DNA from: an uncultured Amphritea sp.
GTDB taxonomy: Bacteria > Pseudomonadota > Gammaproteobacteria > Pseudomonadales > Balneatricaceae
Direction: 5' to 3'
Assembly (NCBI RefSeq): GCF_937127095.1
Contig: NZ_CAKZLP010000060.1
Span: 1-64,000 of the forward strand
Length of the DNA stretch: 64,000 nucleotides
The notes beneath the pieces are model-generated. The model was given only the letters and a program-made list of their open reading frames with translations. It had not been told where the DNA came from and did no database searches. This document shows positions 1 through 17,968 of this stretch, piece after piece. The position numbers and the translations under genes are program-made. Position 1 is the first letter of the stretch. Each line of letters starts with the position of its first letter.

Positions 1-24
1 GGTTTACTGCTTCCTTTTCGGGAT

Positions 25-624
25 TTAAGACAAAACAACGAAGTTAGACCGCATTTGGTAACTTAATCGCAGGTTCCCTAGGCACTCGTTTTGTGATTGT
101 GCGACAGCATATTGACCAAACCATAACTCTCCGTCATCACTTATATACACAGAAGATACGAGCATGTGATCACTCACTTCAGGCTGATCGCCAGGAATGC
201 CTAACTCGAGCACCTCTATCCGTTCTGGTTCAGAGCCTGTCTCATCAGCAACCAGGGTCGCCTTAGACATTGCAGTACCGAAATCTAGGCAAACACGTAT
301 CTTGGTTTCTTCGATAGGATATTTCAAGACATCGAGCTTAACAGATGGATGTGAAGTAATTTCGTTAGGATGCTCTTTCACTACGTCAGCCAGCGATTCT
401 TCGAATTTCGTTTCCTCGGCAGAACTCGTTTTGCTAGTCTCTTCTATATCAGGCTCAGGTATTATAAAAGCAACTTCTGAGCTATCGAGAGATATGATCG
501 CTAGTTGCAGAGAGGACAACTCCTTAGACGTTAACAAGCCAGGTAAAGTGTATCGTCCACGATCATCCTCAACGATGCGCTCTAGCAGATTGCTAATAAT
601 GACCTTTGCTTCCACTGCTTTCAT
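25..624 (-). CDS. Hsp70/actin-fold ATPase-like protein, N-terminal part only (frame broken or truncated)
   Basis: Residues 1-105 are a variable N-terminal region I do not recognise. From about residue 108 the motif DFGTAMSKATL matches the phosphate-1 loop that opens the actin/Hsp70 ATPase fold. A further stretch ends in WFGQYAVAQS, as in divergent Hsp70-like proteins. Family members run for hundreds more residues, but this frame stops at 25-27. Another minus-strand frame reads NPEKEAVN and stays open to the window edge, so a frameshift or decay near 30-45 is possible. The start is supported by GGAGAAG upstream of ATG. It lies 12 bp after the preceding gene and probably belongs to the BREX transcript. 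ATPase fold: moderately sure; function: inferred only. Confidence 0.6.
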   Translation of the reverse strand: MKAVEAKVIISNLLERIVEDDRGRYTLPGLLTSKELSSLQLAIISLDSSEVAFIIPEPDIEETSKTSSAEETKFEESLADVVKEHPNEITSHPSVKLDVLKYPIEETKIRVCLDFGTAMSKATLVADETGSEPERIEVLELGIPGDQPEVSDHMLVSSVYISDDGELWFGQYAVAQSQNECLGNLRLSYQMRSNFVVLS

Positions 625-636
625 GACTACTTCTCC

Positions 637-2082
637 TTAGTCTTTAATCGGCTCAACCCACGCTTTCACGAGTGTTTTGATCCGCCCTGAAAAGTCTTTT
701 TGAACCCCTTCTCGAACCACCTTGACCATACGAACACCAGATTGATGTCCACCAAGCATGTCATGTTCCATAGCGTTATATTCGATCCGAGCCCCCTTTA
801 TATCAGTGAGCTGAAGTTTGCGCATGCGCGCAAGTTGTTTGGCTATACGGTCAATATTGACGTACCCGTTGGCAGCGCTCTTTACAGACGCGGCTAGCAC
901 TGGCTCAGAAATACCCAGAATAGGTACTACAGCACTATTGAGCTTTGCCATTGGGGCTTGAGCTCCGGATACTTCGATCATCAAGGAGCCTATTTGCTGG
1001 TCGACAGAAACATCGACCTTATGTTCTGGAGATCCCTCTTCCCTTTTCTTCTTCCCGCCTGATGCCCACCAATCACGTATGCCAGGATCGATGTCTTGTG
1101 CCAGCTCAAGTCGCTTTTTGAGAGGTAGACTAATGTTGCTTCTACTGCCATAAACCTCAGACAAAAGTGAGAGAAAGGCATCGTCGGTCTTATTTTGTCG
1201 AGCTAGTACAAGAACCGTTTCAAGGAGGCACTCTCGCAGGCCAACAACCTGAGCCGAGCGCCGAATATAAGTATCCCAAATGGAGCGCCCTAGAACACGT
1301 TTGAGTACGCTTAGAACAGAGTAAGATTCAGACAACAACGCGAATGAAAAACGAAGCTGAATTACTCTCAGAAGTAGCTCTAAAACGGCATCGGCGATGT
1401 CACCGAACACTTGATCTTCGATACTATCGCGCGTTAGCTGTAGCGTGGAAACCAGCTCAGCAAGTTGAGGGCCTGGTGATGCTCCGCATTCTCCTTTCCA
1501 TTCGTTACAAACTTCAACGAGGGATATCAGAATACGTCGGACACGTTTTGCACGAGATTCAGGGTTCTCAATCAATGAGAGTGACTTGACATACAGAGCC
1601 AGAGAAGAGAAGAAATGCGATAGTGTTCCGCTTTCTCTCAGTGCCGCCTTCAAAAGCTCCTTTCGTGCTTTCTCAGCCGTATCAGTATTGATTGCCTCAA
1701 AAAAGCAGTATTCTGTTACCCAGTTCGCTGACATATTACTGATAGTAAGTGCAGCATAATAGCGTTCATCGCCATCAGCCAAAACATCTAAAGAAACCGG
1801 TGATTTATCACGAAATAACTGTTGTGCACCATTTAAAACGGTTTCAGAGCGTTTGCGGGCCACGTTTGCAAGACGTCCCAACATTGCCAAAGCCAACAAC
1901 CTATCAGCATCTGAAACCAAAGCTGAGCGTTCCAGAATAGAATCGACAAGGACTTTAAGTTTATCTCCATCAATTGCGGCATGAATACTTCGCTCTGCCA
2001 TCAGCTTTGTTAGCCTGTTATTGAGCTGTTTAATATCCTGTGCCGAAACCAATGACTCTAACAACTCACTTTCTGAATTCAT
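637..2082 (-). CDS. BREX-linked helical protein with GrpE-like C-terminus
   Basis: A 481-residue, mostly helical, soluble protein with no signal peptide or membrane segment. Residues 1-340 are leucine-rich helices of no family I recognise. The last 60 residues (GARIEYNAMEHDM, then GVRMVKVVREGV and GRIKTLVKAWVEP) follow the order of the GrpE beta-rich head, where an HE-type segment leads into a V-x-V-x-x-x-G-Y...GR strand pair. GrpE is the nucleotide exchange factor of Hsp70, and the next gene encodes an Hsp70-like ATPase, which supports this reading. The start has a very strong ribosome site (GGGAGGGG). The gene begins 67 bp after brxL on the same strand. The GrpE likeness was judged by eye. 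Confidence 0.5.
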   Translation of the reverse strand: MNSESELLESLVSAQDIKQLNNRLTKLMAERSIHAAIDGDKLKVLVDSILERSALVSDADRLLALAMLGRLANVARKRSETVLNGAQQLFRDKSPVSLDVLADGDERYYAALTISNMSANWVTEYCFFEAINTDTAEKARKELLKAALRESGTLSHFFSSLALYVKSLSLIENPESRAKRVRRILISLVEVCNEWKGECGASPGPQLAELVSTLQLTRDSIEDQVFGDIADAVLELLLRVIQLRFSFALLSESYSVLSVLKRVLGRSIWDTYIRRSAQVVGLRECLLETVLVLARQNKTDDAFLSLLSEVYGSRSNISLPLKKRLELAQDIDPGIRDWWASGGKKKREEGSPEHKVDVSVDQQIGSLMIEVSGAQAPMAKLNSAVVPILGISEPVLAASVKSAANGYVNIDRIAKQLARMRKLQLTDIKGARIEYNAMEHDMLGGHQSGVRMVKVVREGVQKDFSGRIKTLVKAWVEPIKD

Positions 2083-2149: not shown

Positions 2150-4228
2150 TTACGTTTTGAAAATATCTACTTTAGTTTCCAAACACTTTCGTAGTGATAA
2201 ATCATTAACCCCTACGCTAAACCAAGTATCAGGCTTTTGAAAGAAGTCTAATCCACGGCCAATTTTCACTGTCCATCCATTATCGATACGAATTTCCCGA
2301 TCATGTAAGTTTTCGTTCACCTTGATATCCAATTCAACATCCAGTTCCAACAGGCTTTGCTTAACGTCTTGAAGGCGTTCGGCCATTTCCTGTACGTTTG
2401 TCTGATCGTCGTAACTGGTAATCAGCTGGATTTTCTTCACCGTAGGCTGTTTTAAGATCGTCTCACAGAAGCGAATGAAATTTTGTACCTGGTGGGTTGC
2501 ACGAATATAGGGATCTTCAATCACAACTGACTTCGCACCTGCAAGGTACGGCACAATGATGGACTCATAACTGTAACCAGTGGAATCATAGGTGATCGTG
2601 TAGTGCTGCTCTTTAAGCTCGGGAAGTACTGGTTCAAAAGCCACAGAAGTATCTTGAGCTGCTACTGGCTGTTCAGGTGCTACTTGAGTCGAGGGGGCCG
2701 CTTCAGGCTTATGGCTTTCACCTTCGTCAAGCGTCGTTGAACTAACACCGGGTTTATTCGGATTAAGTGTGGCCTCTGCTCCAATGCTTTCAGGGCAACT
2801 AACTACGACTTCCTTACCTGCAGTATTAAAGAACGATAATCCAATATTTATGAACTCATCATCGGGTTTACGCTTGTTCATTTGTTCTTTAACGCGGCGG
2901 CGACCTTCTATTGCATACACTACATATTCTTCAAATTCCTCATCCGAGCATTGTCCATGAGGGTGAAGCATTTTTAGAAAAGCAGCCACAGTCTTTTTGA
3001 TGCCCTTCTCGTCTCGACCTTCAACACATCCACCCAATTTAATGCGCTTATTTGCTTCCTCGTAGCGATTGGTATGTTTTAATTGGTAGTGAAAAGCTTC
3101 AGCTAAGTAATCTGTTATAAACCCGTAGTTATCCGTTAGAAATTCAGAGCTGTTTTTTGGCATTTCCCAGCCCGGCATGTACATACAGAAGCGATCCATA
3201 ACAGCTAAATCAAACTCCTTAGGTAACGGCTGAAACAAATCGTACTCGGTGGAATTAACCACCTGTTTCACACCCAGATCGAGATTACCGATGAAAGCCA
3301 TACTGGCATCGGCAATAACTTCAGCACCACGGGAAAAACGTCCATTAGCCATAAAGTCTTTCATGATCTGAATGGTATCCGGGTCTTTTACACGCATATT
3401 GCCAACTTCATCAAAGGCGATGGTATCCCAGTACCCTACTAGGCCTACTTTTCTCCTGGCATTGTTGTAAAACAAAGATGCGCTGCTGGTCTGACCGCCG
3501 GAAATCAACGTGGAGTAAGGGGAGAATTCACTGTAAAAATAAGACTTACCCGTCCCCCTGGGCCCTAACTCTATAAAGTTGTAATTTGCCTCTACTAGGG
3601 ATGCCAGTCGCGCTAAGAAATGAAACTTAACCCGCTTAGTAAGTTTGGTTGGCTCCAGGCCAACAGAACGCATAACGATATCCAGCCATTCATTACGGCT
3701 GTAACTCGCCCGCTTTTCACAATATGCGTCATAGTCAAAACGACTTAACTGAATGGGTCGAAGATCTTCTATGTAGAAAGCATAGTCGTCTTCTTCAATC
3801 TCATTATGACAAAGAGTCACTTCCGCCCAAATACCGCCTTCCAGCAGGCGGTCATTGTTTTTATAGAATTTTTCACCAATGGCAATACGTTGTGAGTTGA
3901 AGTTCTCTAGGCTTGCCCAATGACGCTTCTCCTTCTCTACATAGCGCACATGTACTTTATCGATAAACTTATGGCGACCTTTGGTGGCTACTTTTGATTG
4001 AGCAGCATTGGCTTCATCAGGCCGCACATAGTTGTCGTTAAGAGTTTCTAGAACGGCACTTAAGCCTTCCTGAATTTCATCTTCGTCATCGCTGGCACAA
4101 AAACGCGCTAACAAAAACTCCAGCACAAAGGTCGGTACGTTAGTGCCCTTTTTGATACGGTGTAAGAGATCCTTTCTTACCGCCTTACCTTCAAAATGTT
4201 CGAGTAACTTTTCGTCTAGTGCGTCCAT
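2150..4228 (-). CDS. brxL: BREX system Lon-like AAA+ protein BrxL
   Basis: BrxL is the AAA+ core protein that marks type I BREX phage-defence systems; known BrxL forms DNA-binding ring assemblies. In these 692 residues a Walker A site (GPRGTGKS) is at about 230, a Walker B-like IAFDEVGNM at about 270, and an arginine-rich AAA+ lid follows. A low-complexity linker (about 500-565) leads to a C-terminal domain. The length fits the family. The ATG lies 3 bp after the pglZ stop and lacks a clear Shine-Dalgarno site, so translational coupling to pglZ is likely. All ATPase motifs look intact. Confidence 0.92.
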   Translation of the reverse strand: MDALDEKLLEHFEGKAVRKDLLHRIKKGTNVPTFVLEFLLARFCASDDEDEIQEGLSAVLETLNDNYVRPDEANAAQSKVATKGRHKFIDKVHVRYVEKEKRHWASLENFNSQRIAIGEKFYKNNDRLLEGGIWAEVTLCHNEIEEDDYAFYIEDLRPIQLSRFDYDAYCEKRASYSRNEWLDIVMRSVGLEPTKLTKRVKFHFLARLASLVEANYNFIELGPRGTGKSYFYSEFSPYSTLISGGQTSSASLFYNNARRKVGLVGYWDTIAFDEVGNMRVKDPDTIQIMKDFMANGRFSRGAEVIADASMAFIGNLDLGVKQVVNSTEYDLFQPLPKEFDLAVMDRFCMYMPGWEMPKNSSEFLTDNYGFITDYLAEAFHYQLKHTNRYEEANKRIKLGGCVEGRDEKGIKKTVAAFLKMLHPHGQCSDEEFEEYVVYAIEGRRRVKEQMNKRKPDDEFINIGLSFFNTAGKEVVVSCPESIGAEATLNPNKPGVSSTTLDEGESHKPEAAPSTQVAPEQPVAAQDTSVAFEPVLPELKEQHYTITYDSTGYSYESIIVPYLAGAKSVVIEDPYIRATHQVQNFIRFCETILKQPTVKKIQLITSYDDQTNVQEMAERLQDVKQSLLELDVELDIKVNENLHDREIRIDNGWTVKIGRGLDFFQKPDTWFSVGVNDLSLRKCLETKVDIFKT

Positions 4229-4231
4229 AAG

Positions 4232-6733
4232 CTACATATCCAAATAATTTGTTTTGAGTTTAATGTGCGTAAATTCGGCCAACGTGTTTGGATTAAGTGC
4301 TTTGATCGTAAACACACCCTCGAAATCATCATCCATAATGATAGTAATTTTCTGGCTATCACCACACTGCAAGCTCACTGTACGAGTTGCAGCATTAACT
4401 ACACCACCAATCTTCGCTTCTCCAATGACATCACCGGCGTCACTGTGTGCTTCTAGTAAGATCTCAGGTTGAGCAAACATATCATCACTGGTGACAGACA
4501 GCTCAACCACGGGCCGGCGGGACGTGATAACTTTAGCGCCATTTTTGTAACTCAAAGACACAACGGCTTGCTGCGCGACTTTGGTCTGCCCTTTCAATTT
4601 CACTTCCATCACCGGCACCACGCATTCTTGCAAGGATGCGCCACCGTGAAAATAGAGTTTACCTTTGCTGTAAGCCGCCATGGTGCTGGGGCCTGCCAGA
4701 TGACTGTAATCTCCTTTGATGCCCGCTTTACTAGCAGGTATTACAAAATGATGATGGTCAGCATTACCACTACCGAGCGCGATACGCTCATGGGTGAGGT
4801 ACCAATCTCCGGCAGGTTTAGGGCAGACATCCCCCTCTGTTGCTTGGCGGTTCATAAAGAAGCCATGGTCAGTAGCGATGACTACGTGATTAAAGCCCTG
4901 GCTTTGCAACATGCTGATCGCCACACGTAGGTTCTTTAATTCTCGTAGAATGACACTGGGGGCTGTTTTAGGCGTATTTTCAAATTGGGTATCAATCTCA
5001 ACACTACGCAACACGGCCAGTTCTACTGACTTTTTAAACTTGTGGTTATTATCGATAAAGTCATCGGCACGCATTTGAGCAAAACGGCTACCAAAGCGCT
5101 TTTCAAAAACACCCATACGTTGTGGTACCGTGCTTACCGGTATTTCACCTAACATAGGCGCCATGCCAGCATCGCCCTTTTTAATAGACAACTCTTTACC
5201 TGCACCAGGTAACAGACTGGCCATACCGATTAAGGTAATACTCGGCAAACAAGCATAAGCCGGTTTTAAGGTAATTTCGAATTCATCCTTGAGTTGTTTT
5301 TCCAGCTCCAGGCCCAGTTCAAAACGTAAAGCGTCTACCATTAAATAGGCTACACGCTGTCCACTGGTTTGCAGCTTGGGGGCAACTATCTCATCGAAAA
5401 CATCTGCATTGTATAACCGCCCTTGAGGTGGCCAACCGGTATCGGCCAACTGTTTGGTAAAGAGAATTTGTACTTTCTCTGCAAGCTTACGGTATTCGTG
5501 GCGGGCCTTATCGATCACAGGTGTTAGTAAACCCTGGGCATCCCAATAGTCGGTGACCGCCTGTTCAAACTCGCGCTGCAATCGATCAGCTTCGCGCAAG
5601 CTGGTGAGGTAATAATCCAGCAACGCCGCTTGGCTGCCACTGTGCTCTGGCAGCTCACGCAATAAGTCGCTACAAGATTCAATTAAGCTTTTAGCCGCCG
5701 CCACCAAATCCCACTGGGTTTCATTCTCACCGCGATTACTCCATATAGAGGCTTTACGCTGAGATAGAATATCGTTCAAACTATTCAGATCATTGGATTC
5801 AATGGCTTTGATCGCCACTTGCAAGAAGGTACGCTCTTCAAAGGGAAAGGTATCCCTAGCTCCTAAATCGTCAACAGATTGGCAAATCTGCTCTAGGTTT
5901 AAATCCCGCTCAATCTGTTCGGCATAGTGAATATAATCTTCCTGTTTACGCAGATCTTGGCGAAGGCCATCACACAAAATTTCGATAATAGGTTTAGCGG
6001 CAGAATGGGCTTTGGGCACACCCGCCAAACTCTCGGGTAATTCGCCGGGCAGATCAAACACAAATTCACTGAACAGGACAAAACGCCACAACTCTTCGCT
6101 GATGCTTTTCCATTTCTTACCACGAGTAGTGAGCGTTAAACCCAACACCTGATCGAACAGCTGCTTAGCTTCAGCCGCCCAGGCTTCATTGCTATGCAAT
6201 TCAGCTTTTTGCTTCTCATCGGGCACCATCAATGCGCTGACAATTTCCGGGGAAGATTCAACTTTAAGTAATGCACGCAGGGTAGGCCACTGCAAACCAC
6301 CACCAATACCATTAATCACAGCAAAGCTTGGATTTGAGTCTTGTTCGAATGCCTTTCTCACTTCAGTTTGATGATCCGGCTTGGCTTTTAAACAAAGGTT
6401 TAAATAGCTATCGCCATCACCATTTGGGAAGCCCTCACCGCAGGCACTGTAAACACTGAAAGGGTCTTTCTGTTTATCTTCGTCTGTAACAGGCATACCA
6501 GTCGGTACGTAAATCAGTAACTTTTGACCTCCCTGGCCAAAACTAGCCAGGGTTTGCAATGCTTGCTCACGGCTTTCGATACTAGATTCTGATGTATCAA
6601 CTATAGTTAAGGCCGCTGACGCCATCGATAAACAGATATCGCGATAGCAATGTCCAGCGTCGTAAACCACTAATACACGTTGATCCAGTCGCTTTTCGAA
6701 TACTTGAGTTGAAAGGTATTTTTCAATATCCAT
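4232..6733 (-). CDS. pglZ: BREX-1 system phosphatase PglZ type A
   Basis: PglZ is the alkaline-phosphatase-superfamily protein shared by all BREX systems. In this 833-residue copy the metal-binding core is visible as YLMVDALRFELG (about 465) and VVIATDHGFFMN (about 625), with an HHHF segment near 670. The N-terminal third contains the P-loop-free nucleotide-binding-like region typical of type A. The beta-rich C-terminus (about 740-833) is also usual. It lies 9 bp after pglX and 3 bp before brxL, within one transcript. It acts with PglX and BrxC in host methylation and phage exclusion; its exact biochemical role in BREX is unsettled. Confidence 0.93.
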   Translation of the reverse strand: MDIEKYLSTQVFEKRLDQRVLVVYDAGHCYRDICLSMASAALTIVDTSESSIESREQALQTLASFGQGGQKLLIYVPTGMPVTDEDKQKDPFSVYSACGEGFPNGDGDSYLNLCLKAKPDHQTEVRKAFEQDSNPSFAVINGIGGGLQWPTLRALLKVESSPEIVSALMVPDEKQKAELHSNEAWAAEAKQLFDQVLGLTLTTRGKKWKSISEELWRFVLFSEFVFDLPGELPESLAGVPKAHSAAKPIIEILCDGLRQDLRKQEDYIHYAEQIERDLNLEQICQSVDDLGARDTFPFEERTFLQVAIKAIESNDLNSLNDILSQRKASIWSNRGENETQWDLVAAAKSLIESCSDLLRELPEHSGSQAALLDYYLTSLREADRLQREFEQAVTDYWDAQGLLTPVIDKARHEYRKLAEKVQILFTKQLADTGWPPQGRLYNADVFDEIVAPKLQTSGQRVAYLMVDALRFELGLELEKQLKDEFEITLKPAYACLPSITLIGMASLLPGAGKELSIKKGDAGMAPMLGEIPVSTVPQRMGVFEKRFGSRFAQMRADDFIDNNHKFKKSVELAVLRSVEIDTQFENTPKTAPSVILRELKNLRVAISMLQSQGFNHVVIATDHGFFMNRQATEGDVCPKPAGDWYLTHERIALGSGNADHHHFVIPASKAGIKGDYSHLAGPSTMAAYSKGKLYFHGGASLQECVVPVMEVKLKGQTKVAQQAVVSLSYKNGAKVITSRRPVVELSVTSDDMFAQPEILLEAHSDAGDVIGEAKIGGVVNAATRTVSLQCGDSQKITIIMDDDFEGVFTIKALNPNTLAEFTHIKLKTNYLDM

Positions 6734-6742
6734 GTTAGCGAC

Positions 6743-9700
6743 TTATCCTTGTGCGATCTTATTTTTGATATAGGCATCAAGTTCAGCCTCAGTCATTTCT
6801 TTAGGTTGCCACTTTAGCTTAGTGCCTTTTCCTCTTGCTCCGGACACCTCGATCTCTTCCCAAAGATCATCTTCTACTCCATGAGAAATAGCCATACTCC
6901 GATCCTCAAAACAACGCTCAAGCACTCGATTAGGCCAAAAATTGAACGCCATTTTAGACCAATCATATTTACCGTCTTCAAGATCTTTCCACACAGCATG
7001 CAAGTTATCTTTCCATGCAGTAAGTTGAAAGTGCTTAAACAAAGGAGCAGCACACAACAGCACGCCATCGTCAAAATTTGGTTTATAAACACCCGCCAAT
7101 AATTCCAAGCCATCTTTGAAATCTTTTAGCTCCACCTCAAGGGCAATTAAATCAGAAAGCCTTCTCTCTTCTTCCCCTCCCTTACTTTCCATCTTCCTTA
7201 AAAGATTTACTTCTTTTACAACACTTTCAATCTTTGGTTCCAGTAAGTTATTAATGCAAAAATAAAGCGTTTGAGAATTAATGCGCGGATAATACACCCA
7301 TAAAGTGTAGCTACTGGACTTTGTACTTAATGGCCAATATATAGGTGCAGATCTTTTGCTCAGGCTGTATTTTTTTAGATGATATGCAAAAAATCCATTT
7401 GGTTTCTGAATGAAAGACTGAACATTTGATATGCCTGCCCGCTCAAACTCCTCCGACGGATCATTTTTGCAGTATTTAGATGCTTCGCACATAACAAGAT
7501 CTGACAAGTCTTTGCTTACACCAAATCCCATCTCAATAACTGAAGCCCCTTCATCCACACTTATTAGGTTTACTGGGACATCAGGGCAGTCCAACAAGTC
7601 GATGATCGATTCAGATATATCAGCCCAACGACCAAATACTTTACCAACAAAATAAGATAAAAAATCATATTGGTTGGGCCTATATTTCATTAAAGTCGAC
7701 CTGATTGCGCCCTCGAACCTCTCCTTCCATTTGCTCAGCCCAGCATCAGGAAATGAATAAATACTTAGAGAAATTCTGTCAATATCTTTATAGCCCGATA
7801 TCAAGCTCTCTATCGCAAGATCGAACTGACATTGATATTCCTCCAATTGCTTATCAAAGGACTCATTACTTCTGATAATACCTACAAAATACCGCGATGT
7901 TTCTGAAGCAGAAAAACAATTCCTAACAACACTGACTAACTTCTTAGATATTTCAGATAATTCATCCCCCATAAACTTGGGAATTATTGGCAAAGGCGTA
8001 GGTGAAATCACGCCGGCTTGATACAGGGATGCGCTATCCATCCTGCCAAGCCTAGTTGAAATTATTTCATTGACCACAGAAGAATTAAGCAACGCTAATA
8101 TAGAAAACAGGTCAAGATCATCACTTACGTATATTCCCATTCCAGCTACACCGGGGATTGTATTGCGAGGCATAATACCTGGCGAGAACCGGCTGGTTCT
8201 ATACGAAAATGTATACCCTTCCTTCATGTAGTAAGTCGAATTCCTAGTTACTGAAGATTTATGTGATGAAACCTCATGTCCTTTATTCGCCCAAAACACT
8301 TTCAAATGAACATCTGAACAAAAAGGGCTATTATCACCCCCCTTAGAATACGGAACCCAGCTAGGTTTTGAGTCCACTTCAAACCAAGTTCGAACAAACC
8401 TAAAGTCATCACCAGACTGTAAACCGACTTTAACATTAATCCCGCTTTCACTTAGGGAGGGGTTATTGTTTATCGCTTTAAATAATTTACGGTGCAGCCA
8501 ATATGAGAATGGGAAAGCATTTAGAGATAAAAAGCTTCTGGCATCAAGAAGATAGACATCCTCGCTCTTCCGAGTACCATCAAAGCCAACAAGCGAATTA
8601 ATATTTTTTGAAAACAGCGAGTCTTCGATGTTATCGCTATTCTCAAGTACATACATACTCGTTTCAACCATAGCGTCATCAAGTACTCCAGCCCCCAGCT
8701 CCACCCAACTAGAAACTGAGGCATTATTCAAAATATACTCTCGCCAATTCTTAGTAGTTACCCCAAAAAAAATCGCTCTCGATGAAATACATCCGAGTCG
8801 CCCACCCTCAAACTGCATCGAGAGGCATCGCTCAACAAATGACGAGCTAATCTCGTGCCCTCCAGATGTAAATTCACTATCAGCAATGACCTTGTGACGC
8901 TCAGAAAACTCACCAAATGGTGGATTCATCAACACCACGTCATATTTCTTCCTACACAGATCAATAAAAGCAAATCCCTTTGCAGCATCGGCAGCAAACA
9001 AACGTTTTTGACCTAAACCAGACCCTGTAGCGGCTTCTGCGTAAAGCTCAAGTTGCGAAAGTATTAATTGCTCCGCTTCTCCCCAGAAATTTTCGCTAAC
9101 ATCACCAAAGTTGTAATAACGCTTACCTTCACGCACTTCCCATTTATTACCACTAAACAAGCCACCTTGAACTTCCAGTACTTTTTCGTCTTTTTGAGAT
9201 TTGGCATCATCGATAGCCACTTGAATTTCTTCTTCTATCTTTAAAAGTGTTCCTGCCTCACCTGCCAGTTGCATTTTATCGAAGATTTCTTCTACTAACT
9301 GCCCTAAGACTCGTGGCTGAATTTGGCTTGTGAATTCTTTTAGAAGTTGCGTTTCACCCGGCATAGGCTCGGCACAGACAATGTTAGAGCGTTGAATTTT
9401 CGGTCGTTGGTTAGGTTTAATCGCATTATCAGACCATGACTTTTGTGCACGAAGCCAAAGGGAAAGGCCTGCAATTTGCGCTGCACGGGGATCGATATCC
9501 ACACCATGGATATTGTGCTCGATGATTAAGCGAGGAACATCAGCTAAATAATTCTCTTTTGATGAGTAGGCCTCGTGAAGTGCATCCTTTGGTACAGCGC
9601 CCTCTTCAATAAAGAATATTCCTCTACCTTTTTCCGCTTCAATATCCCAAGCTTCTGTGTAAATCTGCTCGAAGAGGTCGAATGCATAAAGGCCAAAATG

Positions 9701-10705
9701 CATTGAACCACAGGCCGGATCGAGCATTCTAATATCACGGGGATCTTTGATTGGACGATGCTCTATATAAACCGTTTGTTGAAGTAACTCTGCCTGGCTA
9801 AGCTCGGCTGTATCTTGCTCATCCTGCTTTGGTGCTTGTTCGCCGACCTTGAGAAACATCTCATTGGGGCGTCGCACAAGGTACTGGCAGCTATCTACCA
9901 ATGCCGTATTGCCCTGAGTCATTTCATACCAGATTCTCCCTAAGGTATTATCGGTAAGAAATTCCACAACGTATCGGGGGGTAAAGAATTGGTTACGAAC
10001 AGCAAGCTCACGACTATTACGTGGCGCTTGCGATTCGTCGCGCATTTTTTTGCGTTCTTCTTTAGAATTAAAGTATTGATAAATCCAGCCAACTGTCTCA
10101 TCTTCAGCCCAAAGCATTTCAAGTTCGGCGTGATTAATCAGACCCAGCAACTCCAACAGTACGGTTTCACGGGGGAATAAACGACCTTGATTAGAATAAC
10201 GATCAAACAATACCGCTAAATCTAAACTCAGCTCATCAAACACACTAAACAGATAGTACTGGTAAGCTTTACCAGTTTCTCCCAGGCTGCTGCCAGCAAT
10301 ACGCTGATATAGCTGAAAACCTTTTGATTGATAGCCCTGGCTAATAGACTCCATCAAAAATTGACGGGCTTCTGCCATACGCAGTGCCGCTAAGCGATTA
10401 AGTACGGTAAAGGCCTGCTCGCGCACAACACGATCGAGTGCTGCTATAACTAGTTTTTTATTTCTGTGCGGCTCGGTTTCATGGCTAGCCGCCAGATAGT
10501 GCCCTAATGTATCGCGTAATAAAGTAGCGGTCTGTTGTTCACTGGGGCTTAGCGCCGGTAAAGCACTAAGTTCTGCGATAGCACCCGTGACTGGATCTAA
10601 CCCATAGGTGTTTTGCAACTGCTGGATGAACTCTTCACTCAGTAATTTACGAGCGTCACCAACAAATTTTTGTAAGCGATTTCGGGTTACTTGATCAAAT
10701 GCCAT
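6743..10705 (-). CDS. pglX: BREX-1 system adenine-specific DNA methyltransferase PglX
   Basis: PglX methylates the N6 of adenine in a short non-palindromic site and so marks host DNA as self. In 1320 residues, the AdoMet-binding motif I is DPACGSMHFG (about 330) and catalytic motif IV is NPPFGEF (about 595). The region 620-1150 is the target-recognition part and is clearly more AT-rich than the ends of the gene, as expected for a domain that is often exchanged. The protein is slightly longer than typical PglX. An eight-A run lies inside the gene near 8765. The recognition site cannot be predicted from sequence alone. Confidence 0.93.
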   Translation of the reverse strand: MAFDQVTRNRLQKFVGDARKLLSEEFIQQLQNTYGLDPVTGAIAELSALPALSPSEQQTATLLRDTLGHYLAASHETEPHRNKKLVIAALDRVVREQAFTVLNRLAALRMAEARQFLMESISQGYQSKGFQLYQRIAGSSLGETGKAYQYYLFSVFDELSLDLAVLFDRYSNQGRLFPRETVLLELLGLINHAELEMLWAEDETVGWIYQYFNSKEERKKMRDESQAPRNSRELAVRNQFFTPRYVVEFLTDNTLGRIWYEMTQGNTALVDSCQYLVRRPNEMFLKVGEQAPKQDEQDTAELSQAELLQQTVYIEHRPIKDPRDIRMLDPACGSMHFGLYAFDLFEQIYTEAWDIEAEKGRGIFFIEEGAVPKDALHEAYSSKENYLADVPRLIIEHNIHGVDIDPRAAQIAGLSLWLRAQKSWSDNAIKPNQRPKIQRSNIVCAEPMPGETQLLKEFTSQIQPRVLGQLVEEIFDKMQLAGEAGTLLKIEEEIQVAIDDAKSQKDEKVLEVQGGLFSGNKWEVREGKRYYNFGDVSENFWGEAEQLILSQLELYAEAATGSGLGQKRLFAADAAKGFAFIDLCRKKYDVVLMNPPFGEFSERHKVIADSEFTSGGHEISSSFVERCLSMQFEGGRLGCISSRAIFFGVTTKNWREYILNNASVSSWVELGAGVLDDAMVETSMYVLENSDNIEDSLFSKNINSLVGFDGTRKSEDVYLLDARSFLSLNAFPFSYWLHRKLFKAINNNPSLSESGINVKVGLQSGDDFRFVRTWFEVDSKPSWVPYSKGGDNSPFCSDVHLKVFWANKGHEVSSHKSSVTRNSTYYMKEGYTFSYRTSRFSPGIMPRNTIPGVAGMGIYVSDDLDLFSILALLNSSVVNEIISTRLGRMDSASLYQAGVISPTPLPIIPKFMGDELSEISKKLVSVVRNCFSASETSRYFVGIIRSNESFDKQLEEYQCQFDLAIESLISGYKDIDRISLSIYSFPDAGLSKWKERFEGAIRSTLMKYRPNQYDFLSYFVGKVFGRWADISESIIDLLDCPDVPVNLISVDEGASVIEMGFGVSKDLSDLVMCEASKYCKNDPSEEFERAGISNVQSFIQKPNGFFAYHLKKYSLSKRSAPIYWPLSTKSSSYTLWVYYPRINSQTLYFCINNLLEPKIESVVKEVNLLRKMESKGGEEERRLSDLIALEVELKDFKDGLELLAGVYKPNFDDGVLLCAAPLFKHFQLTAWKDNLHAVWKDLEDGKYDWSKMAFNFWPNRVLERCFEDRSMAISHGVEDDLWEEIEVSGARGKGTKLKWQPKEMTEAELDAYIKNKIAQG

Positions 10706-10718
10706 TTTTTTCCCAGCC

Positions 10719-13700
10719 CTATTCGTTACTATCAGAAAATTCGAAGATGATATCTATTTCATGAAATCCTTCTAATTTCTGCTTCACTTCTTGCAATTGA
10801 TCTATCACAGAATCAATAGCGTCTTTGGATTTAAGGCTTTTCGGCACCGGAATTTTTTGACTGTAAACTTTCGGTTTAAAGATCCCTTTTTCTTTTTCCT
10901 TCTTTTCTTTTTCAGCAATTTCTTGTTCACGTTGCAGGCGACGATTTTCAGCCGTCTGCTTTACTGATTGCTGCAATTGGCGTAGAGAGGTAGTAATTTC
11001 ATAATCTCTGTTCAGTAAGGTCTTAATACCGCTCAAGCTTTGTTCGACTTCACCGCTAAATTTCTCCAACTGGCCTAACAAGCTATTACGCTCATCAGCT
11101 GTTAACTCTTCCCAACCGGGGCTTCGGGGCAGTTCTTCTTGTTTATTTTTTAAGTTCTGTTCAACATCTTGATTCATCTTGCTAGCCGCATCGGCCACAC
11201 GCGCTTTGATGTTACCCAGCATGGTGGAAAGATCAGCTTGATATTTATGAAAATCTTCCTGTTGTAAGCGCTGCTGTAGCTGCTCAAGATCACCTGCCAA
11301 CTCAGACTTCAATTCACCGGGGACGCCTGAATTTGGCAGGCCTTTTATGCCCTTACACTTGGAATCCAGCTCTAATAAGGTGGACTCCAACCCATAATCC
11401 AAACTAATTTTAACTTCAGCCGCCCATTTTAGATTGCTGTATAAGGGTGATTCTTCAGCCCCCATACGCTGAGTGGCATCAGAACAATCATTAAACAACA
11501 CATCTCTAAGCACTTGTTGCAACTCTTCAACTCGGCTTTGACCTGGCGCATTAAGGCGATTGAGTTTTTCGCCTAGTGAGCCAAACTGTTGCTGAAATAC
11601 CGGAAAGTTTTTCTGCGCGGCTTTGCTGATTTCTTCCTCAAGAGGGATGATCATATTCCCATCGGCAATGACCTCACCCAAGCGCTCAGCAGCCAAGGCA
11701 CACATTTCATTGGACGGCCTATCGTCACGCAGCGATATCCCCACATTGGCAAAGGATTTGTTAGTCTTGAAGGCATCAATTGCTTGCTGACCCACACTGG
11801 TTAACTCGCGCCCTGCGATTTTCAATTTAATCTCGCCAGCGCTGAGCATAGCCGCCAACATATAGCGGGTAGTATCTATAGCCCAGCCAAACTTGGGGCG
11901 ACTAAAATCTTCACAGATTTTTTTGCCATCGACCGTGCCATAGCGGTCTATGTAGTCACGGATGCTGATCAAGCCTTTATTGTTTTCATCAATAGTGAAG
12001 CTACCACTCGCGTCTTTAACGACTAGACCTAATGGATCCGTTTCACTGGTTGCACCACTCAAACCAGCCTTTAAAAACTTTTCAGCCAAGACTGTTTGAG
12101 CACGATACGGAGCTTCGTTGTAACGCTCGTAGACGCGATCAGACACTGTTTTAAGATGCTTTTTACTTGATTCCAATAGATCTTGCGCAAAGGTATCCAC
12201 GGCGGTATTAGTGCCACGAAATACAAAAGAGCCTGATTGCAATGAGCGCTTGAGGATGCGTTGCAACTCGGGCACAAGCTTACCCTGTGCGCGGTCAACT
12301 TCCGCATTACAGTATTCTTTCACTTCTTTGTCGGCATCGTTGCGGTGGCGGCGAGCAATTTCTTCGCAACGATAAATATTGGCCAGCAGCTCATCAACCT
12401 CTGGGGATTTTCTCCCTAATAAATAAATGGTGTTTTGATTGGCCTTTTCACGAGAGTCCGTAACCAGTGCTGCCATGTTATTGTCGTATTCACTGGGATG
12501 AACAAAATCTATAAGCGTTTGTACGGGATTTCTCTCTCCTGCTAGCCCACTGGGTAGGCCATTAGGGTTTTGCAGCTTAAGGCCTGTCTCTACGCTTAAG
12601 GAGCCTTCAACTTGAACTTTAGGCAGAGGTGATAAACACCCTCTTAATGTTTCGCTAAGAATTTTACGCAACTCGATAGTTTTGAGGCCTATCTCATTAC
12701 GCGCACGTTGTATCTCTGTAAGTTTTTCGCTAATAAAACCCAGATAGCCATCTTGCTCACTAAATGGAATATTAGCTTCATTGATTAATTGATCGACCGC
12801 CGTATTGAAAGTAGCTTCATCTTGCGTTTGGGTAATGCTAGCTTGCATCAGCGCCATGGTGTTTTGACGTGTGACTGGTAGATTGGTAAGTATCTCCAGA
12901 ACAGCAACAGTTTTGGCAATGTTGATGTGTATTTCACTATCATAGAAATTGGAGCTTTGTACTTTACCTACGGCTTGATGCTTTGTGGGAAAAGCACGCT
13001 TAAGATCTTTTTCAAGTGCATCGTAAAGTGTGACGGTATTCACCAACATGCCAACATTTTCATTGGCTATAGGCTGCCCATTCGCACCTTCTATCAAAAC
13101 ATCTTGAATAACCTTAATCGCAGAACGAAGACCGATACCGCCAGTGGATTTTGCAAGCTGTCCTAATAGGGTTAAAAGTACCTCAAAATGCGCTGGTAAG
13201 AATGGGTAAAGATTGATGAAGCTAGTTTTATCAAAGTCAGCTTCATAGACTCTTGCATCTTCCAACTTGGTGGCGTGTCGCAAGCCCTGACCGTGTTGAT
13301 CGAATAACTGCCCTAGCTGATCTTCACCACTGTGTGATTTTCCCAGTAATCGCCGGTAACAGATCTCTTTAATATCACTGGATTCAAGATTTATTTGAAT
13401 GGGGAAACGGTCTTTAAGTTTATAAAGTTGCGCTGAGTTTAGTGCTGCTCTTTCATTATCTTCAGTTAATGTTTGCTGTGCTGTACCAATCAACCATACT
13501 TTTCCATCACCAATGTTTTTCAGGTTTTTGGCTAAGCCGTCCAGGTTTAAAATGAGGTTATCGCGAGACCCTACATATTGGCCCACTTCATCAACAACAA
13601 AGATGATGTGCTCTTTACCTGAGTGCTGCCGTGCGATATCAATCATCTCAGCCACGCGATCATTTTCGAAGCGTATTATTTCGCTTGATTCAGTGGAAAA

Positions 13701-14381
13701 TGCGGTATCTGTTCTGAATAACTGTGGATACATCTCGTGCGCAATGGCAGGAATCAAACCATCCACAACTAGCTCATCATTTTGTAAAGCTTTCCATTCT
13801 TCGCCTTCAGTGTAGCTTTTGAATAACTCCAAAAATTCGTCGTATCGCCCTTCTTTTTGCAACTTACGCTCAAAGGCTGCCACCTTGAGATTGCGCGAGT
13901 AACCCGCCCATTGCAGTACTTTGTAGTAAAGCACGGTAGCCACATCTTCCATGGTGGCACCGGCAACCTGCTCTGATGCAAGATCTAACATTACTACCGC
14001 GGCAGGGAATCGCTTAGATACTGTAGTGAGCAGTGATTTCGTTTGAGATTTGGTTAGACGATCTTTAAGATGATCTATAAAGGGGCGGCCATCAACTTCA
14101 ACGGAATCATCAAATGCCAAGCCCAGATATTTGGTAAAGGAGCTTTTACCTGAGCCATAGAATCCCGACACCCAGACACCGACCTCATTCTCGCCACCCT
14201 GCTCCATAGCTAATTGCATTTTTGAGAGCAGATCAAAAAAGTGCTCTTCGATGCTATCAGTAGCCACATATTCGGTAATTTCCGATTTGAGACGTTTCTC
14301 AGCATCAGCACCGTAGGTGATCACTTTTTCGATTGCGCGATCAATGCCTTTCGATGGATCGAAGAGTTGTTTAATTTGCAT
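10719..14381 (-). CDS. brxC: BREX system P-loop ATPase BrxC
   Basis: BrxC (PglY-like) is the large ATPase of BREX. The 1220-residue protein has a Walker A motif GFYGSGKSSFTK at about 68-80 and a Walker B-like IIFVVDEVGQY at about 270. Long coiled-coil regions follow (about 650-1180), ending with a lysine/glutamate-rich helix. The length is normal for the family. It begins 30 bp after brxB and ends 13 bp before pglX. It is required for defence in characterised type I systems, but its detailed action is not settled. Confidence 0.92.
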   Translation of the reverse strand: MQIKQLFDPSKGIDRAIEKVITYGADAEKRLKSEITEYVATDSIEEHFFDLLSKMQLAMEQGGENEVGVWVSGFYGSGKSSFTKYLGLAFDDSVEVDGRPFIDHLKDRLTKSQTKSLLTTVSKRFPAAVVMLDLASEQVAGATMEDVATVLYYKVLQWAGYSRNLKVAAFERKLQKEGRYDEFLELFKSYTEGEEWKALQNDELVVDGLIPAIAHEMYPQLFRTDTAFSTESSEIIRFENDRVAEMIDIARQHSGKEHIIFVVDEVGQYVGSRDNLILNLDGLAKNLKNIGDGKVWLIGTAQQTLTEDNERAALNSAQLYKLKDRFPIQINLESSDIKEICYRRLLGKSHSGEDQLGQLFDQHGQGLRHATKLEDARVYEADFDKTSFINLYPFLPAHFEVLLTLLGQLAKSTGGIGLRSAIKVIQDVLIEGANGQPIANENVGMLVNTVTLYDALEKDLKRAFPTKHQAVGKVQSSNFYDSEIHINIAKTVAVLEILTNLPVTRQNTMALMQASITQTQDEATFNTAVDQLINEANIPFSEQDGYLGFISEKLTEIQRARNEIGLKTIELRKILSETLRGCLSPLPKVQVEGSLSVETGLKLQNPNGLPSGLAGERNPVQTLIDFVHPSEYDNNMAALVTDSREKANQNTIYLLGRKSPEVDELLANIYRCEEIARRHRNDADKEVKEYCNAEVDRAQGKLVPELQRILKRSLQSGSFVFRGTNTAVDTFAQDLLESSKKHLKTVSDRVYERYNEAPYRAQTVLAEKFLKAGLSGATSETDPLGLVVKDASGSFTIDENNKGLISIRDYIDRYGTVDGKKICEDFSRPKFGWAIDTTRYMLAAMLSAGEIKLKIAGRELTSVGQQAIDAFKTNKSFANVGISLRDDRPSNEMCALAAERLGEVIADGNMIIPLEEEISKAAQKNFPVFQQQFGSLGEKLNRLNAPGQSRVEELQQVLRDVLFNDCSDATQRMGAEESPLYSNLKWAAEVKISLDYGLESTLLELDSKCKGIKGLPNSGVPGELKSELAGDLEQLQQRLQQEDFHKYQADLSTMLGNIKARVADAASKMNQDVEQNLKNKQEELPRSPGWEELTADERNSLLGQLEKFSGEVEQSLSGIKTLLNRDYEITTSLRQLQQSVKQTAENRRLQREQEIAEKEKKEKEKGIFKPKVYSQKIPVPKSLKSKDAIDSVIDQLQEVKQKLEGFHEIDIIFEFSDSNE

Positions 14382-14411: not shown

Positions 14412-14996
14412 TCAACCACCAACATGCATGGACCGGTAGTTGCCATCTTCTGGGTAAAAGCCCAGGAACTTTAAGCGGGTTTGCCCTGTGCGTACGCCGG
14501 GATACAAAAATACGGTTGGCACGCTAAAGCGGCCCTGCAGTTGACTCTCTACTGAGCCAATTCTCATATATGGATGCAGTGCTTCTAAGTCGGTGACTAG
14601 TAGCAATGCTTTTTCGTCACCTTCTAATTCATTGAGCTTTTGCTCTAATCGAATTTGCAGGCCTTTCTCTTTATCATTGAGTGTATTGGCCAGGGAGTTA
14701 TTAGTTTTTGTCCATTCCTGAGGTGCAGCGGCATCTTGTTTGAGCCATATATTACGACGAAAGGCAGGCACCGATTGGAGGATATCATTCACATGCTCAG
14801 CAATGGAAAATGTGTGTACATTCCAACCCTGCTTTTGCAGCATCTGAATCCATGCTTTGGTTTGACGTTTTACCTCGATGATCTGCTTCGGTGAAAACAC
14901 CAAATAGTAGATAGGCTCAAAACTAGCGTGCTGAAACTCTCTACCCTGCTTGATGCGGGTAACGAGCTCATCAAAGTCCTGTTTCAATGATGACAT
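14412..14996 (-). CDS. brxB: BREX protein BrxB (DUF1788)
   Basis: A 194-residue cytosolic protein of the DUF1788 family. Family hallmarks are an N-terminal helical segment, the strand FEPIYYLVFSPKQ (about 24-36), and a C-terminal half ending in VPTVFLYPGVRTGQT and a short FYPEDGNYRSMHV tail. BrxB is a small core component whose molecular role is not well defined. The ATG overlaps the end of brxA by 26 bp, so the two are translationally linked. Confidence 0.9.
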   Translation of the reverse strand: MSSLKQDFDELVTRIKQGREFQHASFEPIYYLVFSPKQIIEVKRQTKAWIQMLQKQGWNVHTFSIAEHVNDILQSVPAFRRNIWLKQDAAAPQEWTKTNNSLANTLNDKEKGLQIRLEQKLNELEGDEKALLLVTDLEALHPYMRIGSVESQLQGRFSVPTVFLYPGVRTGQTRLKFLGFYPEDGNYRSMHVGG

Positions 14997-15765
14997 CTAC
15001 GACCTCTTCCATGGTTTTATACGCCCAGCTAATAGAGACAACATCAGCGGCAGTCTGAATGATCCAGAATTTATGAACACTCAGACGCTTAAGTTCATCG
15101 CGAACGTCTTCTGACTCTAGGCCAAAGAGTTGCCAGTCTGGGTGATTAATTAGGTTGTTATCAGCTATGCCCTGTAGGTGGAGGTCATAGGCAAGAATAA
15201 TGGTGGCGCAGGGATCTATGCGGATCGGCGTTATTTGGCGCGACATTCGAGTTAATGGCTGCAACAATTGGTAGTCAACACAGACGCTCAACAAGTAGGA
15301 CGACAAACGCTTGATGGTTGTTTCTGACCAGAGCTTTTTAGTTTTACCGTCATAGGTGGCGCGTTGTACGAACTCTGTTGAGTCTTCGCCGCTAATTTCT
15401 GTATAACCCGATGCGTAGCGTTCCCAGTACAGCTGGGTAACGAAATCTCGCAAGATAAGGTTTGCCCTAGAGGTATAGATAAAAAATAATTGATTTAAGG
15501 CTCTAGTAGAGATTCGATGGTTAAGTGTCTGAAGCCACTTAACAGGCTGGTGGGCAGAATTTAAATATCGCGGGCCAAAGCACTCCGCCACTATATTGCG
15601 AAGGCGACGAGCAGTAACATTGGGAAATTCACCCGAATCTAGGGCAGCATTAAACAAGTCTTGGGTACCCATGTCTAATTGCCACAGACCTAACAGTGTT
15701 TGGGTTTCTTCAATAAGTCCTAAACCTGCTTGTAGCTGTGTTGTGTAATATACCTGTTCCGTCAC
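14971..15765 (-). CDS. brxA: BREX protein BrxA (DUF1819)
   Basis: BrxA is a small DNA-binding core protein of BREX with a fold like the NusB-type RNA-binding proteins. The 264 residues show the family signature near the N-terminus (LIEETQTLLGLWQLDM, then NVTARRLRNIVAECFGPRYL) and an aromatic middle region. The start is GTG at 15765; it overlaps the brxE stop by four bases (GTGA), which fixes the start choice and shows coupling. It is somewhat longer than the shortest BrxA proteins but has no extra recognisable domain. Confidence 0.9.
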   Translation of the reverse strand: MTEQVYYTTQLQAGLGLIEETQTLLGLWQLDMGTQDLFNAALDSGEFPNVTARRLRNIVAECFGPRYLNSAHQPVKWLQTLNHRISTRALNQLFFIYTSRANLILRDFVTQLYWERYASGYTEISGEDSTEFVQRATYDGKTKKLWSETTIKRLSSYLLSVCVDYQLLQPLTRMSRQITPIRIDPCATIILAYDLHLQGIADNNLINHPDWQLFGLESEDVRDELKRLSVHKFWIIQTAADVVSISWAYKTMEEVVDVIIETGL

Positions 15766-16256
15766 GCCTGACCTCGGTAATAAGGATAAACTGCCTGCTT
15801 ATTTGTAAAGCCACTTAAATACGCTGCAGCCATGTGCCTCATCACTGATTGGTTGATCTCACCCTGATCAAGTAATAATGGTCCTATACCCTGCATTGTA
15901 TCTCCACAAGCAAGCTCTTGTAGGAGTATATAGGCATCATCTTCTGACCCTATACTCTCTATAATGGTTGCATCTTTTATCAGCGACTGACTAATATCGT
16001 GCTCAACATTTTCAGGCAGCCGAAATAGATGAAAGACATCCCCGACACCAATATGCTCATCATGAGTAACTTGTGCCGCCGCACTCGCTCCGCTAACTCG
16101 CGCTAAAACGGACGTTTTGGGGAATACGGGATTGAGAAACGCCTCACCTGAACGAGACAAAAAAGTGCTTAGCCACCAGCTGTGCCGGCCCTTTTCACCT
16201 AGAAACGCTACACATGTACGTAGTCTAACAAGGTTGTTAGTTAAATCCGGTGTCAT
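15762..16256 (-). CDS. brxE: BrxE family protein
   Basis: A 164-residue protein of the BrxE family, recognised from LRLRTCVAFLGEKG near the N-terminus, then WWLSTFLSRSGEAFLNPVFP and HDEHIGVGDVFHLFRLP. BrxE was named from type 6 BREX, where it precedes brxA, and its function is unknown. Here it is the first gene of an operon that ends with brxL, the type I marker. The start has a good ribosome site (AAGGA, 6-nt spacing). No WYL-type BrxR regulator precedes it. Family assignment rests on motif memory. Confidence 0.75.
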   Translation of the reverse strand: MTPDLTNNLVRLRTCVAFLGEKGRHSWWLSTFLSRSGEAFLNPVFPKTSVLARVSGASAAAQVTHDEHIGVGDVFHLFRLPENVEHDISQSLIKDATIIESIGSEDDAYILLQELACGDTMQGIGPLLLDQGEINQSVMRHMAAAYLSGFTNKQAVYPYYRGQA

Positions 16257-16637: not shown

Positions 16638-17834
16638 CTACCCTGCCTTTGCCCTTAACTCATCAAGATAGTCCGCCCAGCGCTGCATCATCTTCGTCCG
16701 TTGCGGCAAGTGAGCTGTACGATTGTAAGCACGGCCTAGTGGATCTTTTACTGCATGGGCGAGCTGGTGCTCTATCAACTCCACTCGCTCTTCTAAGACC
16801 TCATCAAGCAGGGTACGGGCCATTGCCCTAAAGCCATGGCCCGTCATTTCTTCTTTACTGATCCCCATATTCCGGAAAGCTGACAATATGGCATTATCAC
16901 TCATAGGACGACGAGGACTTCTTGCTGAAGGGAAAACATACCCATCCCAATGACCGGTCAAAAGCTTTTGCTCTTCCAAAATTTCAATCGCTTGACGACT
17001 GAGTGGAACTATATGGTCTACCCCCATTTTCATTTTCACTGCGGGTATACGCCACACTGCTTTTTCTAAGTCTATCTCTTGCCATTCAGCGTGCCGCAAC
17101 TCTTTGGGTCGAACAAAGACTAAAGGAGCAAGCTGTAGCGCTGCACGCACCGTTGACGTTCCTTCATAGCTGTGTAGCATATTTAAAAACTTACCTACCT
17201 TGTCAGGCTCGATAATTGCGGAAAAATGCTGTGTCTTATGCGTCGCCAATGCTCCTTTCAAATCTGGAGTGATATCTCGTTGCGCTCGCCCTGTCGCAAC
17301 GGCATAACGAAACACCTGGCCCGTGACCTGTTTTATCCTGTGTGCACTTTCCGTCGCTCCACGATTTTCTACACGACGCAGTACAGCCAACAATTGTGGA
17401 GGGGTAATATCATCCAGGGGCAGGGTCCCTATATAGGGCAGAAGATCTCGCTGAATAGCACGTAAAACCTTATCGGTATAGCTAGGCGACCAATTGGCAG
17501 CTTGTTGCTTATGCCACTCTAGCGCAATGTTCTCAAAGTTATTCAGCTGCGCTTCTGTCTGAGCAGCCTTCTTAGCCTTTTTCGCTTGAGAAGGATCTAT
17601 GCCCTGCTCTAACTGGTCTTTCGCCAAATCAGTCGCTTTACGAGCTTCCTTGAGTGTAATTCTCGGGTACATGCCTATCGATAGGCGCTTCTCTTTACCG
17701 GCAAAGCGGTATTTGAGTCTCCAGCATTTTGAACCAGCAGGCGTTACTTCCAGATACAATCCTTTGCCATCACTCAGCCGGTATGCCTTCTCTCTAGACG
17801 TCGCTTGTTTTATTTGCATATCAGTCAATGACAT
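16638..17834 (-). CDS. P4-type tyrosine integrase
   Basis: A site-specific recombinase that inserts islands at tRNA 3' ends. The N-terminal DUF4102-type arm-binding domain opens with MSLTDMQIKQA and includes GKGLYLEV and LSIGMYPRITLKEAR. The SAM-like core-binding domain is at about 100-180. In the catalytic domain all key residues are visible: Arg in FVRPKELR, HGFRAMART (His-x-x-Arg), His in EHQLAHA and Tyr in GRAYNRT. I prefer the ATG at 17834 (GGAGG just upstream) over the track start at 17903, since family members begin with MSLTD. It lies about 190 bp from the tRNA-Ala 3' end and points away from it, as usual for an attL-proximal integrase. Confidence 0.92.
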   Translation of the reverse strand: MSLTDMQIKQATSREKAYRLSDGKGLYLEVTPAGSKCWRLKYRFAGKEKRLSIGMYPRITLKEARKATDLAKDQLEQGIDPSQAKKAKKAAQTEAQLNNFENIALEWHKQQAANWSPSYTDKVLRAIQRDLLPYIGTLPLDDITPPQLLAVLRRVENRGATESAHRIKQVTGQVFRYAVATGRAQRDITPDLKGALATHKTQHFSAIIEPDKVGKFLNMLHSYEGTSTVRAALQLAPLVFVRPKELRHAEWQEIDLEKAVWRIPAVKMKMGVDHIVPLSRQAIEILEEQKLLTGHWDGYVFPSARSPRRPMSDNAILSAFRNMGISKEEMTGHGFRAMARTLLDEVLEERVELIEHQLAHAVKDPLGRAYNRTAHLPQRTKMMQRWADYLDELRAKAG

Positions 17835-17968
17835 ACCGCCTCCATTATCGATAGTGGGGGCATTTTTCATGAGCATCGAGTAATTTTGAGAAAATGCCCC
17901 CATTAATGCCCCCTAAATACCCCGGATGTGGGGGCACTCTATGGGACTACTCTGGACACAGTATAAAC

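What the first reader, a model, noticed from the sequence alone, without database searches (positions are those of the whole stretch)
25..2082. Chaperone-like pair (GrpE-like plus Hsp70-like) attached to a BREX operon
Two genes follow brxL on the same strand with strong ribosome sites and gaps of 67 and 12 bp. One ends in a GrpE-like head pattern, the other has the Hsp70/actin phosphate-1 motif. A dedicated ATPase and exchange factor would be a new accessory module for BREX, for example sensing phage proteins or remodelling the BREX complex. The motifs are seen directly; the link to defence is inference from position.
Basis: partly seen in the sequence, partly recalled or inferred. Interest (0 to 1): 0.75.

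Follow-up and report, generated by a model that had tools for sequence, protein, structure and literature searches.

The report
Broken Hsp70-like add-on beside BREX
Next to a bacterial anti-phage (BREX) operon sits a two-gene add-on, a helical-repeat protein and an Hsp70-type ATPase, already listed as a candidate defence family, found elsewhere beside other restriction systems, and cut in two here by a transposon.

Summary
The two genes after brxL are real and at the stated coordinates, but the smaller one is only a piece. The window begins at a contig end inside an IS5-like insertion; the last 17 residues of the 199-aa ORF are IS-encoded, and the rest of the gene lies on contig C17 in the continuing frame. 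Both genes match PADLOC's uncharacterised candidate family PDC-M61: M61A (481 aa) and M61B (about 580 aa when intact). M61B is an Hsp70-type nucleotide-binding domain (Foldseek top 50 all Hsp70; DnaK motifs collinear) without a substrate-binding domain, and a Val sits where DnaK has its catalytic Lys70. M61A has a helical-repeat (HEAT/ARM-like) body. The GrpE-like head is not supported: every sequence test is at chance level and the structure prediction there is unreliable. The pair is not a BREX part: of six loci examined, one follows BREX, three follow type I R-M genes directly, one lies some 4 kb from type III R-M genes, one sits alone at a prophage edge; 1 of 22 BrxL-carrying genomes of the order has it. 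Best reading: a rare, portable Hsp70/solenoid accessory of restriction systems, inactivated in this genome. The defence role is inferred from gene position only.

The parts
1..77 (-). Terminal 77 bp of an IS5-like insertion sequence; the contig ends inside it. Supplies the last 17 codons and the stop of the 199-aa ORF
   Evidence: Same 82 bp at the ends of contigs C77 (99%) and C9 (96%); terminal repeats GGAACCTGCGATTAAG / GGAAGTTGCGAATAAG on C60 and C17, CTAG on both sides; similar end beside a DDE_Tnp_1 transposase ORF in a congener
78..81 (.). CTAG target-site duplication (second copy on contig C17, bases 75-78)
   Evidence: other copies of the IS are flanked by CTAA or CTAG, so a match alone is weak evidence
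79..624 (-). 5' part of the M61B gene (native codons 1-182): N-terminal mini-domain (about residues 1-47), acidic linker, start of the Hsp70 NBD with the phosphate-1 motif at residues 111-121 (window 294-262)
   Evidence: PADLOC PDC-M61B PDLC04731 E 3e-50, profile 1-194 of 588; remainder on C17:75-1250, profile 196-587, E 1.7e-164; motif coordinates
637..2082 (-). M61A, 481 aa: helical-repeat body (residues about 1-340), linker, C-terminal helices plus small beta domain (375-478, low confidence)
   Evidence: PADLOC PDC-M61A PDLC04730 E 4e-173; AlphaFold2 model pLDDT mostly 60-95 in 1-340, below 50 after about 350
2150..4228 (-). brxL (long form with C-terminal PLD-like MIT_C domain)
   Evidence: Pfam BrxL_ATPase E 5e-119, BrxL_N, MIT_C; PADLOC BrxL
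4232..6733 (-). pglZ
   Evidence: Pfam PglZ E 3e-13, PADLOC PglZ E 0
6743..10705 (-). pglX (brxX) methyltransferase
   Evidence: NCBIfam BREX_1_MTaseX above cut-off
10719..14381 (-). brxC
   Evidence: PADLOC BrxC E 0
14412..14996 (-). brxB
   Evidence: Pfam BrxB, PADLOC BrxB
14971..15765 (-). brxA
   Evidence: Pfam BrxA, PADLOC BrxA
15762..16256 (-). brxE-family gene, first gene of the operon
   Evidence: NCBIfam BrxE_fam E 6e-37
16638..17903 (-). tyrosine integrase at the edge of the island
   Evidence: Pfam Phage_integrase with Arm-DNA-bind_3; next to tRNA-Ala 18028-18103

Best explanation
The pair is a member of the portable two-gene candidate defence family PDC-M61. M61B is an Hsp70-type nucleotide-binding domain with an N-terminal mini-domain and no substrate-binding domain; M61A is a helical-repeat (HEAT/ARM-like) partner whose small C-terminal domain may contact it. 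Proposed mechanism: M61A is the scaffold and client-binding half, and M61B the ATP-dependent clamp. With Val in place of the catalytic lysine of DnaK, M61B should hold ATP rather than hydrolyse it quickly, so it would act as a slow nucleotide switch that assembles or releases a complex on infection, tuning or backing up the neighbouring restriction system. Shown: family membership, Hsp70-type fold and motifs, helical repeats, association with restriction genes, the IS-split gene. Inferred: co-transcription, complex formation, slow hydrolysis, the defence role. In this genome the module is most likely dead because the IS5-like insertion separates phosphate-1 from phosphate-2.
For: PADLOC M61A E 4e-173 and M61B E 3e-50, with the remaining M61B sequence on C17 at E 1.7e-164. 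The intact M61B model, although of low mean confidence, gives 232 PDB matches at E<=0.001, and the 50 best listed are all Hsp70/BiP/DnaK, best E 5.8e-8. hhalign to DnaK is collinear from phosphate-1 through the GQ.A block to phosphate-2, E 7e-5, probability 63%, with V opposite DnaK K70. Invariant DFGTAMSK, D.GAGT.DF, LTGG...LP and AV..GG motifs in five intact relatives. The pair follows hsdS by 3 bp in HTCC2148, Seongchinamella and Microbulbifer, lies near type III R-M in an Alcanivoracaceae MAG, and is found at the edge of a prophage contig.
Against: No functional test exists here or in the papers searched. The M61B model has mean pLDDT 50.9 and pTM 0.37, so the fold call rests on lobe II, motifs and the profile alignment. 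The K70-to-V reading depends on an alignment of moderate probability. The sample is six loci, three of them nearly the same arrangement, and one of the six shows no restriction genes in the 13 kb seen. An IS-broken copy says the module is dispensable in this strain.
Confidence: 0.55

Rival explanations
1. GrpE plus Hsp70 chaperone pair dedicated to BREX: gene 1 is a nucleotide exchange factor, gene 2 an Hsp70, together remodelling BREX or sensing phage proteins.
For: Gene 2 family is Hsp70-type. The predicted order helix-helix-short strands at M61A 375-478 and a by-eye pattern E-Y-N-P..H-E..L...V..V...G resemble a GrpE head. HSP70 plus GrpE genes occur in other conflict systems (PMC7159879).
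Against: GrpE HMM at 0 bits, within the shuffles; profile Z 0.04; no Pfam GrpE; hhalign about 0.3% or less; pLDDT below 50 there; no GrpE among the 50 best Foldseek hits. Pair absent from 21 of 22 BrxL genomes.
Confidence: 0.12
2. Stand-alone two-gene anti-phage system that simply co-resides with BREX and R-M in defence islands, with no functional link to them.
For: Lone pair at a prophage edge; partners vary (BREX, type I, type III); defence systems cluster in islands in general (established knowledge).
Against: In three genomes the pair starts 3 bp after hsdS and is followed within about 20 bp by an AAA ATPase gene and then a further gene, a tightly packed operon.
Confidence: 0.27
3. Unrelated cargo (actin-like or chaperone genes carried by a mobile island) without any defence role.
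For: The island also carries integrase, YqaJ, RadC, DUF932 and recombination-directionality-factor-like genes, four of its genes shared with the Alcanivoracaceae locus; no activity shown.
Against: Five of six loci lie beside or near restriction genes; PADLOC lists the pair as a candidate defence family.
Confidence: 0.06

Closest known systems
PADLOC candidate PDC-M61 (PDC-M61A, PDC-M61B)
   Same: Both genes match over full length (the second in two pieces); same gene order
   Different: Here after BREX and with gene B split by an IS; no published function found (no paper held names PDC-M61)
Hsp70 / DnaK nucleotide-binding domain
   Same: Phosphate-1, phosphate-2 and adenosine motifs in order, GQ.A block, Foldseek top hits
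   Different: No substrate-binding domain, catalytic Lys70 replaced by Val, extra N-terminal mini-domain and linker, below Pfam HSP70 detection
CoCoNuT CnuD / CnuCD (PMC11090510)
   Same: Hsp70-like ATPase combined with HEAT-like repeats in restriction superoperons that can include BREX; predicted poor ATP hydrolysis
   Different: CnuD is described with NBD and SBD and accompanies McrB-like GTPases; no McrBC gene was seen beside M61; homology not tested
HSP70 + GrpE genes in GAP1-N2 conflict systems (PMC7159879)
   Same: Hsp70, including one without peptide-binding domain, next to a second gene in a conflict operon
   Different: Partner there is a recognised GrpE; no GAP1-N2 or FNIII gene noticed here
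GrpE
   Same: Only the order of predicted secondary structure at the C-terminus and a by-eye motif
   Different: No sequence similarity above chance; long helical-repeat body instead of a coiled coil

Membership tests
PADLOC PDC-M61 | Gene A matching PDC-M61A profiles | tested here: met
   E 4e-173 over 5-478 of 481 residues
PADLOC PDC-M61 | Adjacent gene B matching the PDC-M61B profile | tested here: met
   Profile 1-194 in the window and 196-587 on C17; the gene is interrupted
Hsp70 | Phosphate-1, phosphate-2 and adenosine motifs in Hsp70 order | tested here: met
   phosphate-1 in the window ORF, the others in the C17 part
Hsp70 | Hsp70-type NBD fold | tested here: met
   Foldseek 50 best listed hits all Hsp70 for an intact relative; model of low confidence
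Hsp70 | Catalytic lysine (DnaK K70) | tested here: not met
   Val (Glu in the distant L079) at the position after GQ.A in the alignments; register of moderate confidence
Hsp70 | Substrate-binding domain | tested here: not met
   About 25-30 residues after the NBD in a 579-aa protein
Hsp70 | Pfam HSP70 gathering score | tested here: not met
   No HSP70 hit for intact relatives
GrpE | Sequence match to GrpE profile | tested here: not met
GrpE | Beta-wing head fold | tested here: inconclusive
   Helices then five short strands predicted, pLDDT below 50
GrpE | Stimulates ADP release from its Hsp70 | not testable with these tools
   needs purified proteins
BREX core component | Regularly present in BREX operons | tested here: not met
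   1 of 22 BrxL-carrying genomes among 245 of the order also has M61A
BREX type I-like operon | brxA, brxB, brxC, pglX, pglZ, brxL in order | tested here: met
   plus a BrxE-family gene
CoCoNuT | McrB-like GTPase in the operon | tested here: inconclusive
   No McrB-like ORF noticed among the BREX genes or listed neighbours, by inspection and not by profile

The most novel reading that the evidence does not exclude
A hydrolysis-poor Hsp70 NBD and a helical-repeat partner form an interchangeable switch that is bolted onto mechanistically unrelated restriction systems (BREX, type I R-M, perhaps type III R-M), acting as a common infection sensor or safety catch.
Probability: 0.25. Interest if true: 0.7.

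Novelty: new member of a known kind. Interest (0 to 1): 0.4.

Why it matters
If the pair works as proposed, one chaperone-derived switch serves several different restriction systems, which would explain how unrelated DNA-based defences share a control layer; intact operons with type I R-M make this easy to test. In this strain it is a relic: the split gene shows that the BREX operon persists without the add-on.

Tried and rejected
GrpE homology: Pfam, GrpE HMM with shuffles, column-shuffled profile alignment, hhalign with 18 and 27 GrpE sequences and with 5- and 6-row M61A alignments: all at chance. Script errors on the way were corrected. PDB sequence searches with both alignments found nothing relevant. 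Foldseek with M61A gave only generic helical repeats, none at E<=0.001. No relatives of either gene in plasmids or of the close family in phages, and no DNA match to M61A in E. coli. Profile scans of 399 phylum and 369 class genomes found no further M61A; one weak alphaproteobacterial hit lies among ordinary metabolic genes with no M61-like pair and was rejected as chance. No attachment repeat for the island was found on C17 with the tRNA region. No paper held names PDC-M61.

Full report
What is there. The window is the start of contig C60 of a 91-contig genome. On the minus strand lies a complete BREX operon: brxE-family, brxA, brxB, brxC, pglX, pglZ, brxL. Two ORFs follow brxL with gaps of 67 and 12 bp and good ribosome sites. 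No terminator-like site lies between brxL and the pair; promoter-like and terminator-like sites in this region are no more frequent than in shuffles. Co-transcription is therefore plausible but not shown.

The second gene is broken. The first 77 bases of the window are the end of a repeat also found at the ends of contigs C77 and C9. Its terminal repeat matches 13 of 16 positions of the one on C17, both are flanked by CTAG, and its counterpart in a congener lies beside a DDE_Tnp_1 transposase ORF. The family call IS5-like rests on this transposase type, the 4-bp duplication and the CTAR target, and is my inference from established knowledge of IS families. The PADLOC profile PDC-M61B matches residues 1-180 here (profile 1-194) and resumes at position 196 on contig C17, with the reading frame continuing across the single CTAG. 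So the 199-aa ORF consists of 182 native codons plus 17 from the IS. Because other copies also sit at CTAA or CTAG, the matching CTAG alone would be weak; the continuity of profile and frame is the stronger argument. I did not see reads spanning the junction.

What the proteins are. Gene 1 matches PADLOC PDC-M61A over its full length; no Pfam or NCBIfam family is recognised for either gene. AlphaFold2 on a shallow five-row alignment gives a helical-repeat body for residues 1-340 with moderate to high confidence, then an unreliable C-terminus of helices and short strands. Foldseek hits are generic solenoids such as beta-catenin and karyopherins, none at E<=0.001, so HEAT/ARM-like is a description of shape, not a family. 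Gene 2's intact relatives are about 580 aa. Despite low model confidence (pLDDT 50.9), the 50 best structural hits listed are all Hsp70 proteins. Profile alignment to DnaK is collinear from phosphate-1 to phosphate-2 at E 7e-5. The position of DnaK Lys70 holds Val in the close relatives, including the window copy (FGQYAVAQS), and Glu in the distant one. There is no room for a substrate-binding domain.

GrpE. It does not survive testing: the GrpE HMM gives 0.0 bits, a score reached by 133 of the shuffled sequences (2000 made, 1795 scored), column-shuffled profile alignment gives Z 0.04, and hhalign probability stays at about 0.3% or below. My GrpE set is from Pseudomonadota only, so a very divergent GrpE head is not excluded.

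Where it occurs. Relatives are rare. One scan of 85,462 genomes found four: three in which the pair follows hsdR-hsdM-hsdS by about 3 bp, headed by a CARF-type RtcR regulator and followed by an AAA ATPase and a further gene, and one in an Alcanivoracaceae MAG where type III R-M genes end about 4.4 kb upstream. A more distant pair sits at the edge of a prophage contig with no restriction genes in view. In 245 genomes of the order, 22 carry BrxL and three carry M61A; only the window's genome has both. None of 17 congeners has M61A. The related-loci scan uses short peptide patterns and will miss divergent members, so these are lower bounds. The window's C17 flank and the Alcanivoracaceae locus share a set of mobile-element genes at 46-63% identity, consistent with travel on related islands.

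How it may work. I propose an Hsp70-type clamp held by a helical-repeat partner, acting as a slow nucleotide switch on the neighbouring restriction machinery. The CoCoNuT authors made a similar argument for their Hsp70-like, HEAT-linked proteins in restriction superoperons (PMC11090510), and a chaperone has been implicated in phage sensing by an NLR-related protein (PMC12169576, title and start of abstract only). Every functional step is inference. The main rival is an independent two-gene defence system that merely shares islands.

Verdict. A real but already catalogued candidate family, seen here in a BREX context, inactivated in this genome, with an interesting and testable architecture.

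Noticed in passing
window:36392-38228 (-): A second candidate defence pair: radical SAM/B12-binding protein (PDC-M51A, E 1.6e-163) and kinase-like protein (PDC-M51B, E 1.2e-64).
   Followed up: partly
L009 (contig C17) 1496-4278 (-): Directly beyond the broken M61B: a 631-aa protein with P-loop kinase, HAD and phosphoribosyltransferase matches and a radical SAM protein; no PADLOC match.
   Followed up: partly
window:16638-18103: Tyrosine integrase beside tRNA-Ala(ggc), suggesting that the BREX block is on an integrative island; no attachment repeat found on C17.
   Followed up: partly
L013:17998-19500, L017:2270-3757: CARF-containing RtcR/PspF-type sigma-54 regulators head the type I R-M plus M61 operons, suggesting ligand-controlled expression.
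   Followed up: no
L079:6414-9620: Distant M61A-M61B pair as cargo at the end of a prophage contig.
   Followed up: partly
window:2150-4228: BrxL carries a C-terminal PLD-like MIT_C domain (Pfam E 2e-52).
   Followed up: no
control genomes: The PDC-M61B profile also rings in 5 of 14 well-known genomes, possibly through DnaK-like proteins; not examined.
   Followed up: no
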